64,000 nt of DNA from Bacteroidota bacterium (lineage in GTDB: Bacteria > Bacteroidota > Bacteroidia > B-17B0 > Aurantibacillaceae). A program made the translations under genes and the position numbers. Positions 38,852 through 40,246 of the stretch are shown in pieces. Under the pieces are notes generated by a model. That model was not told where the DNA came from, did no database searches, and saw nothing but the letters and a program-made list of their open reading frames with translations. Position 1 is the first letter of the stretch. Each line of letters opens with the position of its first letter. The stretch lies in assembly GCA_016185125.1 (NCBI GenBank), contig JACPOC010000027.1, positions 62,001-126,000 on the forward strand, read 5' to 3'.

Positions 38852-38907
38852 TTTAAATTATCGTAATTTATAAATAACTAGTAATTAAGTACTTATAAAT
38901 TATTTTT

Positions 38908-38940
38908 GGAATTATTTGGAATCAGATTCCAAATAATTCC
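38908..38940. promoter_or_regulatory. Perfect 16-base palindrome upstream of the DUF4143 ATPase, probable operator
   Basis: GGAATTATTTGGAATC (38908-38923), one base, then its exact reverse complement (38925-38940). The promoter -33 TTTG (38915-38918) lies inside the left arm and the -7 element begins one base after the right arm, so a bound protein would block transcription. The right part (38918-38940) recurs with 20 of 23 identities just after the gene (40126-40148). Confidence 0.7.
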
Positions 38941-38949
38941 GTATATTTG
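38915..38949 (+). promoter_or_regulatory. Promoter of the DUF4143 ATPase
   Basis: TTTG (38915-38918), 23 bases, TATATTTG (38942-38949). The -7 element matches the consensus fully. The predicted transcript start falls at or next to the GTG start codon at 38954, implying a leaderless message. Confidence 0.6.
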
Positions 38950-38953
38950 TTTT

Positions 38954-40114
38954 GTGATTCAACGCTCTGCAAAAGATAAATTATTAAACATCGCTTCTAA
39001 ATTTAAAGCGGTGGCGGTTACCGGTGCAAGGCAAAGCGGAAAAACTACGCTTATAAAAAAGGTATTTAAAAACAAAGCGTATCTTTCGTTAGAAAATCCT
39101 GATAACCGCCACTTTGCCTTGGAAGATCCGCGCGGATTTTTGGCATCGTATCCGAAAGGCGCTATTTTAGATGAGGTTCAACGAACTCCTTTATTGTTTT
39201 CTTACCTTCAGGAAATTCTGGATAACTCTAAAGAAAAAGGTTTGTTTATTCTTTCCGGTTCAAATAATTTTTTATTGCAGCAATCTATTTCGCAAACATT
39301 GGCGGGAAGAGTAGGCTATCTCAATCTTTTACCATTTTCTATTACCGAATTAAGGAAAGGAAAAATGCTACCTTCTGCCGACGACGCTCTTATGCTAAAA
39401 GGATTTTATCCTCCGGTGTACGATCAAAAAATTCCGCCGCAAGATTGGTGCCCCAATTACATACGCACCTACATTGAAAAAGATGTAAGACAAATTAAAA
39501 ACATTACCGACCTTATTATTTTTGAGCGCTTTATGAGATTACTGGCCGGAAGAACGGGTCAGGAATTAAACAGTAGTGCTTTGTCGGTGGAAGCGGGAGT
39601 TGACGTAAAAACTATTCAATCATGGATTGGCATTCTTGAAAGCAGTTTTATTATTTATCTTTTAAAACCGCATCATAAAAATTACAATAAAACTTTGGTT
39701 AAACGCCCTAAAGTTTATTTTTACGACACCGCGCTTGTGTGTTCTTTGTTGGGCATTCATACGGCTAAACAATTAAGCACATACCCAACCAGAGGTGCTA
39801 TTTTTGAAACCATGGTAATTGCTGAGTTGGTAAAAAAGAGAACCAATAAAGGCTTACCCGTAAATTTATTTTATTGGCGTGATAAAACAGGACATGAAAT
39901 TGATTTAATAATTGATGATGGCGGTAGTTTGCTGCCTGTGGAAATTAAATCAGGCAAAACAATAAACTCTGAGTTTTTTAAAAACATTGATTATTGGACA
40001 AATTTAAGCGGGGTTCAAAAATCTGTTTTGTTATATGGGGGCGAGCAAAGTCAAAAAAGAAGTAATGGCACTGAAATTTTTAATTGGAGAAAATTAATCA
40101 GCAAAGATCTTTAA
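38954..40114 (+). CDS. AAA ATPase with C-terminal DUF4143 (PD-(D/E)XK-like) domain
   Basis: 386 residues from a GTG start. Walker A is GARQSGKT (residues 24-31), Walker B AILDEVQR (about 72-79), and the sensor-like LSGSNNFLL follows. The C-terminal DUF4143 domain has the nuclease-like pattern HEIDLII...LPVEIKSGK. Physiological role unknown; such genes are widespread as single, often mobile units. The upstream in-frame TTG (38906) would place the promoter inside the gene; GTG at 38954 gives the normal family start MIQRSAKDKLLNIA. It is bracketed by similar palindromic sequences at 38918 and 40126. Confidence 0.88.
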   Translation: MIQRSAKDKLLNIASKFKAVAVTGARQSGKTTLIKKVFKNKAYLSLENPDNRHFALEDPRGFLASYPKGAILDEVQRTPLLFSYLQEILDNSKEKGLFILSGSNNFLLQQSISQTLAGRVGYLNLLPFSITELRKGKMLPSADDALMLKGFYPPVYDQKIPPQDWCPNYIRTYIEKDVRQIKNITDLIIFERFMRLLAGRTGQELNSSALSVEAGVDVKTIQSWIGILESSFIIYLLKPHHKNYNKTLVKRPKVYFYDTALVCSLLGIHTAKQLSTYPTRGAIFETMVIAELVKKRTNKGLPVNLFYWRDKTGHEIDLIIDDGGSLLPVEIKSGKTINSEFFKNIDYWTNLSGVQKSVLLYGGEQSQKRSNGTEIFNWRKLISKDL

Positions 40115-40125
40115 TGGAAAAATAT

Positions 40126-40148
40126 GGAATCGGAATCCAAATTATTCC
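40126..40148. repeat. Downstream copy of the palindrome half flanking the ATPase gene
   Basis: A 23-base sequence, starting GGAATCGGAATCC and ending TTATTCC, 11 bases after the ATPase stop. It matches 38918-38940 at 20 of 23 positions in the same orientation, so the gene lies between near-direct repeats. Confidence 0.65.
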
Positions 40149-40246
40149 ACATTGATTTTAAAAATTACTTTGTCTTTCCGACGGTTAGATATTTGCTGAT
40201 ATTATGCTGAAATTTTTTCTAAGCATCAGTATCGAACTCATAAAAA

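What the first reader, a model, noticed from the sequence alone, without database searches (positions are those of the whole stretch)
38908..40148. AAA/DUF4143 ATPase gene bracketed by near-identical palindromic sequences, with a leaderless GTG start
A perfect 16-base inverted repeat overlaps the promoter, and 23 bases of it (38918-38940) recur at 20/23 identity and the same orientation 11 bases after the stop (40126-40148). The -7 element TATATTTG ends 4 bases before the GTG start. The unit could be autoregulated through the palindrome, and the flanking copy suggests the gene moves as a cassette between such sites, with its PD-(D/E)XK-like domain acting on them. This is the best candidate here for an undescribed element.
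Basis: partly seen in the sequence, partly recalled or inferred. Interest (0 to 1): 0.75.

Follow-up and report, generated by a model that had tools for sequence, protein, structure and literature searches.

The report
Palindrome-tagged single-gene mobile cassette
A very common bacterial and archaeal gene of unknown function often carries its own private palindrome in its promoter, sometimes repeated right behind the gene, and in relatives the palindrome-plus-gene unit is found inserted as a block next to other genes, so this supposed defence gene may be, or travel as, a tiny mobile element.

Summary
In detail: a perfect 16+1+16 palindrome (38908-38940) overlaps the promoter of an AAA_14/DUF4143 gene, and a copy (28/34) starts directly behind the stop codon; within 3 mismatches its core occurs at just these two places in the 3.34-Mb genome. 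It is not a local oddity: 45 of 142 family genes have an upstream palindrome scoring >=12, against 2 of 572 control windows. The palindrome behaves as symmetric DNA, tracks the protein, and in three genomes tested is private to one gene. A matched downstream copy is a minority trait (11 of 141). The unit runs from the palindrome's outer edge to the stop codon. Direct repeats (palindrome copies in 9) bracket 29 of 243 cassettes but 2 of 360 neighbouring genes. In relative G696 a 75-bp repeat of a tex-like gene's 3' end brackets a 1305-bp unit; four relatives show the empty site with one copy. So: probably an autoregulated gene that moves as a one-gene cassette. That its own AAA+/PD-(D/E)XK protein moves it, or that palindromes are its targets, is not shown. 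The family is filed as defence candidate PDC-S01.

The parts
38907..38940 (.). upstream private palindrome (perfect 16+1+16 core 38908-38940) overlapping the promoter; left edge of the unit
   Evidence: DNA homology to the closest relative L014 starts at -47 from the start codon
38942..38949 (+). TATATTTG, fits the Bacteroidota -7 element TAnnTTTG (motif recalled), 4 bases before the GTG
   Evidence: consensus from own knowledge
38954..40114 (+). AAA_14 + DUF4143 gene, 386 aa, GTG start, TAA stop
   Evidence: PADLOC PDC-S01
39002..39352 (+). AAA_14 domain (residues 17-133), Walker A GxRQxGKT, Walker B DE
39512..39721 (+). winged helix-turn-helix-like region (residues about 187-256)
   Evidence: order of secondary-structure elements in the AlphaFold2 model, pLDDT 94.6; my reading
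39791..40036 (+). PD-(D/E)XK-like core (residues about 280-361); E285, D317 and K332 invariant in 53 sequences, E330 at least 90%
40115..40149 (.). downstream copy of the palindrome, imperfect, directly behind the stop codon; right edge of the unit

Best explanation
The gene belongs to a large, horizontally spreading family (AAA+ ATPase, winged-helix-like part, PD-(D/E)XK nuclease-like domain). Many members carry at their left end a private dyad-symmetric DNA site that covers the promoter. The encoded protein most likely binds that site as a symmetric assembly and so controls its own expression (inferred). The palindrome-to-stop-codon block, about 1.2-1.3 kb, moves and inserts as a unit; insertions can leave long direct repeats of the target, for example the 3' end of a neighbouring gene (shown by one occupied and four empty sites in one group, inferred elsewhere). 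In a minority of members, the window's among them, a second copy of the site marks the right edge. Which enzyme moves the block is not shown.
For: Upstream palindromes of score >=12 in 45/142 against 2/572 controls. Shared consensus TTACAAATTTGAAATT-N-AATTTCAAATTTGTAA in 76 odd-centred sites, which were chosen for being palindromic. 10 of 17 arm pairs changed on both sides, 35 double-change cells against 13.2 shuffled, 2 one-sided cells: DNA dyad rather than RNA hairpin. Palindrome tracks protein: Spearman 0.473, best of 1000 permutations 0.330, control region -0.026. Private pairs: exactly two sites per genome in G000, G395 (one contig) and G423. Up-down match >=15 in 10 of 141 genes against 9 of 3352 cross-pairs. 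Unit edges at the palindrome edge and the stop codon in relatives at other places. Flanking direct repeats at E<=1e-5: 29/243 (20 of them not palindrome copies) against 3/975 shifted windows and 2/360 neighbouring genes. G696: 75-bp repeat, 73 identical, around 1305 bp; four relatives with one copy and no unit. Patchy: 68 of 199 genomes of one genus, 1-13 copies where present. Own locus: of the 29 relatives' glutamine synthetase III loci held, none has the gene in the held flank and 2 have the window's next gene there instead.
Against: No binding or expression data. 214 of 243 cassettes show no flanking repeat at E<=1e-5, and repeat length varies (24-170 bp in 19 non-palindrome cases), unlike known transposases. 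In Rhizobiaceae the repeat-like edges are a motif that also stands in a locus without a DUF4143 gene (L164), pointing to another mover. Of 6 units behind a full tex-like C-terminus only G440 and G696 show a right-hand copy, so descent from one ancestral insertion is possible. Two further relatives with the same right flank, G581 and G645, lack the tex repeat before it. The window's own insertion has no alignable empty site. Genes without a matched copy show hardly any residual half-site downstream.
Confidence: 0.55

Rival explanations
1. An ordinary horizontally acquired single gene (defence candidate PDC-S01 or similar) with an autoregulatory operator; the downstream copy is a second operator for looping or for blocking read-through, and the flanking repeats come from general illegitimate recombination.
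For: Operator-like position and symmetry; private sites would avoid cross-talk between paralogues; most genes lack a matched downstream copy (130 of 141) and lack flanking repeats (214 of 243).
Against: Repeats are far rarer around neighbouring genes (2 of 360). Unit edges recur at the palindrome and stop codon in different places. Occupied and empty sites differ by the whole unit plus one repeat copy.
Confidence: 0.27
2. The cassette is a passenger: other recombination systems (integrase-like att sites, recombination at CRISPR repeats or gene 3' ends, natural transformation) move it, and the DUF4143 protein plays no part in mobility.
For: Edge sequences differ by lineage: T-arm-like motif in Agrobacterium, a CRISPR-like repeat at the Thermus right edge (my reading), gene 3' ends elsewhere. 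The Rhizobiaceae motif also stands in L164, which has no DUF4143 gene.
Against: The 1305-bp unit of G696 has room for little beyond the one gene, and the family is over-represented among repeat-flanked genes of the same loci.
Confidence: 0.25
3. The palindromes act as RNA hairpins (terminators or leader structures).
For: Perfect arms can fold; two flank the gene where a promoter and a terminator are expected.
Against: In the window the upstream one lies before the -7 element, so before the expected start of transcription; compensatory changes are nearly all Watson-Crick double changes (35 double against 2 one-sided cells); up and down copies match in sequence, not only in pairing.
Confidence: 0.05

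Closest known systems
PDC-S01 / COG1373 / AAA_14-DUF4143 family (PADLOC phage-defence candidate; the COG number is recalled)
   Same: Same protein family: PADLOC model PDLC04790 matches residues 1-374 at 7.4e-97; both Pfam domains present.
   Different: The family is defined by protein; validation is pending for most such candidates (passages of PMC12988326). The private palindrome, the downstream copy, the unit edges and the flanking duplications are added here.
Insertion sequences and other minimal transposons (general knowledge)
   Same: One gene, about 1.2-1.3 kb, patchy, multicopy, direct repeats at some insertions.
   Different: No known transposase domain; ends are not inverted repeats of each other but a self-palindrome at the left, sometimes also at the right; duplications long and variable.
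Archaeal AAA+ ATPases SSO1545 (2fna) and PABY2304 (2qen)
   Same: Best structural matches of residues 1-266/267 (Z 14.7 and 15.3, rmsd 3.2 A, 244 aligned).
   Different: 20% and 16% identity; the alignment stops before the PD-(D/E)XK part.
Cdc6/Orc1-type initiators (2qby) and RuvB (7pbl)
   Same: AAA+ proteins among the Foldseek matches (E 2.1e-5 and 3.7e-5); both carry winged helices and Cdc6/Orc1 binds symmetric origin DNA (general knowledge).
   Different: No nuclease domain there; low TM-scores (0.29-0.36).
Integrative elements at gene 3' ends (tyrosine-recombinase type, general knowledge)
   Same: Repeat equals the 3' end of a host gene, whose reading frame stays complete (tex-like, uvrB, a class II tRNA synthetase).
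   Different: No integrase in the unit.

Membership tests
AAA_14/DUF4143 (PDC-S01) | AAA_14 and DUF4143 domains over Pfam cut-offs | tested here: met
   96.6 and 169.1 bits, cut-offs 27 and 28.1
AAA_14/DUF4143 (PDC-S01) | PADLOC PDC-S01 model | tested here: met
   E 7.4e-97
AAA_14/DUF4143 (PDC-S01) | anti-phage activity | not testable with these tools
   validation described as pending for most such candidates (passages)
Active PD-(D/E)XK nuclease | conserved acidic and lysine residues in an alpha-beta-beta-beta-alpha-beta core | tested here: met
   E285, D317, K332 invariant and E330 >=90% in 53 sequences; order of elements in the model. The C-terminal part was not folded or searched alone, and activity was not tested
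Insertion sequence / transposon | insertion as a unit with target duplication | tested here: met
   for one group of relatives only (75-bp repeat in G696, four empty sites); not for the window's own copy
Insertion sequence / transposon | self-encoded transposase | tested here: inconclusive
   no known transposase domain in the protein; whether DUF4143 acts as one is unknown
Insertion sequence / transposon | terminal sequences at both ends | tested here: inconclusive
   palindrome at the left edge in many; at both edges in 11 of 141
Autoregulated operon | symmetric site over the promoter that co-varies with the protein | tested here: met
   the promoter position rests on recalled promoter motifs
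Autoregulated operon | protein binds the site and represses | not testable with these tools
   no bench data

The most novel reading that the evidence does not exclude
The DUF4143 protein is itself the mobility enzyme of a new class of one-gene mobile element: AAA+ and winged helix recognise the element's own palindrome, the PD-(D/E)XK domain cuts, and integration at gene 3' ends copies a long stretch of the target, so that one of the most abundant 'defence' genes in prokaryotes is a selfish element.
Probability: 0.28. Interest if true: 0.93.

Novelty: new variant of a known kind. Interest (0 to 1): 0.74.

Why it matters
PDC-S01 is reported as the fourth most common defence across prokaryotes, with 9,986 copies counted in archaea and 29,494 in bacteria, and validation pending for most such candidates (passages of PMC12988326). 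A private DNA site for many copies gives the family a direct bench handle: a DNA ligand to test for binding, cutting and expression control. The insertion evidence also gives a concrete alternative to the defence label, a one-gene mobile cassette, which excision and insertion assays can decide.

Tried and rejected
Palindromes as a general insertion target: not supported in three genomes, where no other copy was found (each of the two patterns was absent from the 11 other genomes searched). Downstream copy as the remnant of a tandem second cassette: not supported; in all 12 cases compared the up-down match ends before the start codon, and in 11 it overlaps the palindrome (for L210 that script found the outer repeat instead). 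General residual half-site downstream in the other genes: weak, 66 genes, mean 6.27 against 6.02 and 5.86 in two control stretches, p 0.064 and 0.027. Window empty site: L044 and L060 lack the gene between the same neighbours but are too diverged to align. Rhizobium etli and phaseoli junctions: a shared 22-nt right end, left side ambiguous. L213 at uvrB: a 122-bp repeat, but relative G567 keeps the left flank and the first 25 nt of the gene, so a clean empty site was not shown. L210 region: none of the 298 other genomes gave a match in the flanks at E<=1e-12. L294: perfect 34-bp repeat, but its left flank is not the tex-like gene itself, and in G458 the left flank and the tex-like end lie about 1.5 kb apart. 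G584: right flank at a contig end, a tex-like fragment on its far side. Solved structures by sequence: short P-loop matches only. NCBIfam and PHROGs: no family for the window protein. Paper search (571 papers, 30 listed) returned noise and was not followed, so papers that mention PF13173 are not excluded. In the structural second look a family that is not listed is not excluded.

Rows dropped: 155 loci gave 147 complete genes, 143 distinct, 142 with enough flank, 141 in the pair test; 110 loci gave 107 genes, 105 with enough flank (one of these, L305, repeats L038); 248 distinct genes in all, 243 with flank on both sides. L084 and L113 are missing from the centred sites because their genes run off the contig. 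The window's own gene (L013) is included in the counts.

Full report
What is there. The window lies in an unnamed 3.34-Mb, 59-contig genome, where this is the only gene matching DUF4143. Gene 38954-40114 encodes 386 aa with AAA_14 and DUF4143, PADLOC PDC-S01. A perfect 16+1+16 palindrome stands over the promoter and a 28/34 copy begins directly behind the stop codon. With up to 3 mismatches the 21-nt core occurs at these two places only in the genome (the backward control pattern gave one place).

Is it general? I collected family members from relatives, plasmids, GTDB contigs of many phyla and viral contigs. In 142 genes with enough flank the best palindrome in the 116 nt around the start scored >=12 in 45, against 2 of 572 control windows of the same loci; >=10 in 66 against 8; >=8 in 97 against 34; downstream >=12 in 11. 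The upstream palindromes of score >=10 centre on -35.5 (median); some include or abut the start codon or contain TTGACA (reading TTGACA as a -35 box is mine). A second set, L204-L313, 101 loci of one unnamed genus g6 (Flavobacterium, I presume) and 9 of other genera of the window's class, gave >=12 upstream in 59 of 105 and downstream in 17 of 105, in slightly wider windows and without a separate control.

What kind of site? Of 248 distinct genes, 109 had a palindrome of score >=9 in the right place, 76 odd-centred and 33 even-centred; the odd ones share TTACAAATTTGAAATT-N-AATTTCAAATTTGTAA. These were chosen for being palindromic, so their complementarity is not independent evidence, but the shared letters are. 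In 12 aligned sites 10 of 17 arm pairs changed on both sides, with 35 double-change cells (shuffled mean 13.2) and 2 one-sided cells. The near-absence of G-U intermediates and, in the window, a position before the -7 element point to DNA symmetry. Palindrome similarity follows protein similarity (Spearman 0.473; best of 1000 Mantel permutations 0.330; sequence further upstream -0.026; 75 genes).

Matched pairs. Own up-against-down similarity >=15 was seen in 10 of 141 genes and in 9 of 3352 cross-pairs: L040, L110, L094, L039, L035, L027, L025, L037, L013 (window) and L034; L026 was added from the gapped search. In the ten the matched stretch starts between -11 and +17 of the stop codon. In the second set 5 of 105 reached 15: four of these five best matches lie outside the palindrome, and L234 has a 19-nt core; one of the four, L210, also carries a weaker palindrome copy. 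So the matched copy is a minority trait; the cases come from the window's class or from contigs named Bacteroidia or Bacteroidetes. For L040 and L027 the palindrome occurs exactly twice in their genomes, at both ends of one gene, although those genomes hold 8 and 4 homologous matches.

Edges and flanks. DNA homology between cassettes in different places begins near the palindrome's outer edge and ends near the stop codon (window gene against L014: -47 to +3). In genus g6 a unit (L294) keeps its left edge within 10 nt and its right edge within 13 nt in 9 of the 10 other genomes that match it at 74-90% identity; the tenth, G440, matches further out. Direct repeats with inner edges within 170 nt of the gene were found at E<=1e-5 in 29 of 243 cassettes, 3 of 975 shifted pseudo-cassettes and 2 of 360 neighbouring genes of >=200 aa. 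By the script's list of palindrome pairs 20 of the 29 are not palindrome copies; 19 if L210 is also set aside, with lengths of 24 to 170 bp. Several are 3' ends of host genes: uvrB (L213), a class II tRNA synthetase (L142; asnS by recall), and one C-terminus shared by L228 and L245. Others lie in intergenic or repetitive sequence.

Occupied and empty site. In G696 the last 75 bp of a tex-like gene (HHH_9 and S1 domains in the relative L381; name recalled), stop codon included, stand on both sides of a 1305-bp unit, 73 of 75 identical. G697, G592, G705 and G476 have the same gene end running straight into the same right flank, with one copy; G592 carries a unit elsewhere. Two more relatives with that right flank, G581 and G645, have no tex repeat before it, and G584 is not readable there. 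Of 11 homologous units, 6 lie behind a full tex-like C-terminus (G440, G580, G696, G579, G567, G461), G596 behind a fragment, G629 shows a right-hand fragment only, and G257, G592 and G715 show none; right-hand copies are seen in G596, G440, G696 and G629. The DUF4143 frame of G440 is only 211 codons. One ancestral insertion followed by descent is not excluded for the group.

Other lineages. In Agrobacterium plasmids one about 1.5-kb unit, 96-99.6% identical, sits in five right-hand and four left-hand contexts; 8 of its 10 edges carry a GGTTCGATTCC-like motif within 3 mismatches, and two plasmids without the unit show one motif-like stretch at the same right flank, diverged in L355. No tRNA gene is present in the ten loci scanned, and the motif also stands in L164, which has no DUF4143 gene, so another system may do the moving there. 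In Thermus the unit, 96% identical in two contexts, abuts a CRISPR-like repeat (my reading of the repeat).

Protein. The AlphaFold2 model (pLDDT 94.6, pTM 0.92) shows an AAA+ part, a winged-helix-like part and a PD-(D/E)XK-like core with E285, D317, E330 and K332. Nearest solved folds for residues 1-267 are 2qen and 2fna; Cdc6/Orc1 and RuvB appear in Foldseek. The C-terminal part was not searched alone.

Mechanism. Shown: symmetric DNA site over the promoter region, its link to protein identity, private pairs in three genomes, unit edges, excess of flanking repeats, one occupied/empty case. Inferred: binding, autoregulation, role of the downstream copy. Open: the enzyme that moves the unit. 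The window's own insertion is supported only by synteny: of the 29 relatives' glutamine synthetase III loci held, none has the gene in the held flank, and 2 show the window's next gene there.

Known or new. Searches of the paper library for DUF4143 (1 paper), COG1373 (7), PDC-S01 and related names (10), and word combinations on palindromes, ATPases and mobile elements listed no paper whose title or abstract start concerns these palindromes or such a cassette. I saw passages of PMC3861447, PMC4406477, PMC12988326 and PMC13356809 and otherwise only the listings; most subscription-journal papers and all bioRxiv preprints are outside that library.

Noticed in passing
L344 2247 and 3732; L346 3777; L353 1501 and 2984; L164 1020 and 2100 (minus strand); L165 3755 (minus strand): A tRNA-T-arm-like motif, GGTTCGATTCCnTTCAAGGCGA, recurs between modules of Rhizobiaceae plasmids; no tRNA gene in the ten loci scanned, which did not include L164 and L165. 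It looks like an att-type site of an unidentified cassette system.
   Followed up: partly
L100 1-3629: A 3629-base Bacteroidales contig is an exact tandem of a 1912-bp unit holding one DUF4143 gene with its site (0 mismatches over 1717 bases): tandem duplication, small circle or assembly product.
   Followed up: partly
L161 4291-4318, L162 4291-4318: In Thermus plasmids the DUF4143 unit ends at a CRISPR-like repeat, in L161 the first of an array; PMC4406477 lists TT_P0211 (DUF4143) with the value 6.6 in a section on expression changes with plasmid DNA (passage only).
   Followed up: no
L029-L032 and L294, upstream of the start codon: Some subfamilies carry two or three palindromes in tandem before the gene (GTCAACGTATTGAC and CCGTCAATTAATTGACGG types).
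   Followed up: no
L080 2936-4201: In Emticicia a cassette sits on the opposite strand between adjacent genes annotated L-ribulose-5-phosphate 4-epimerase and araA.
   Followed up: no
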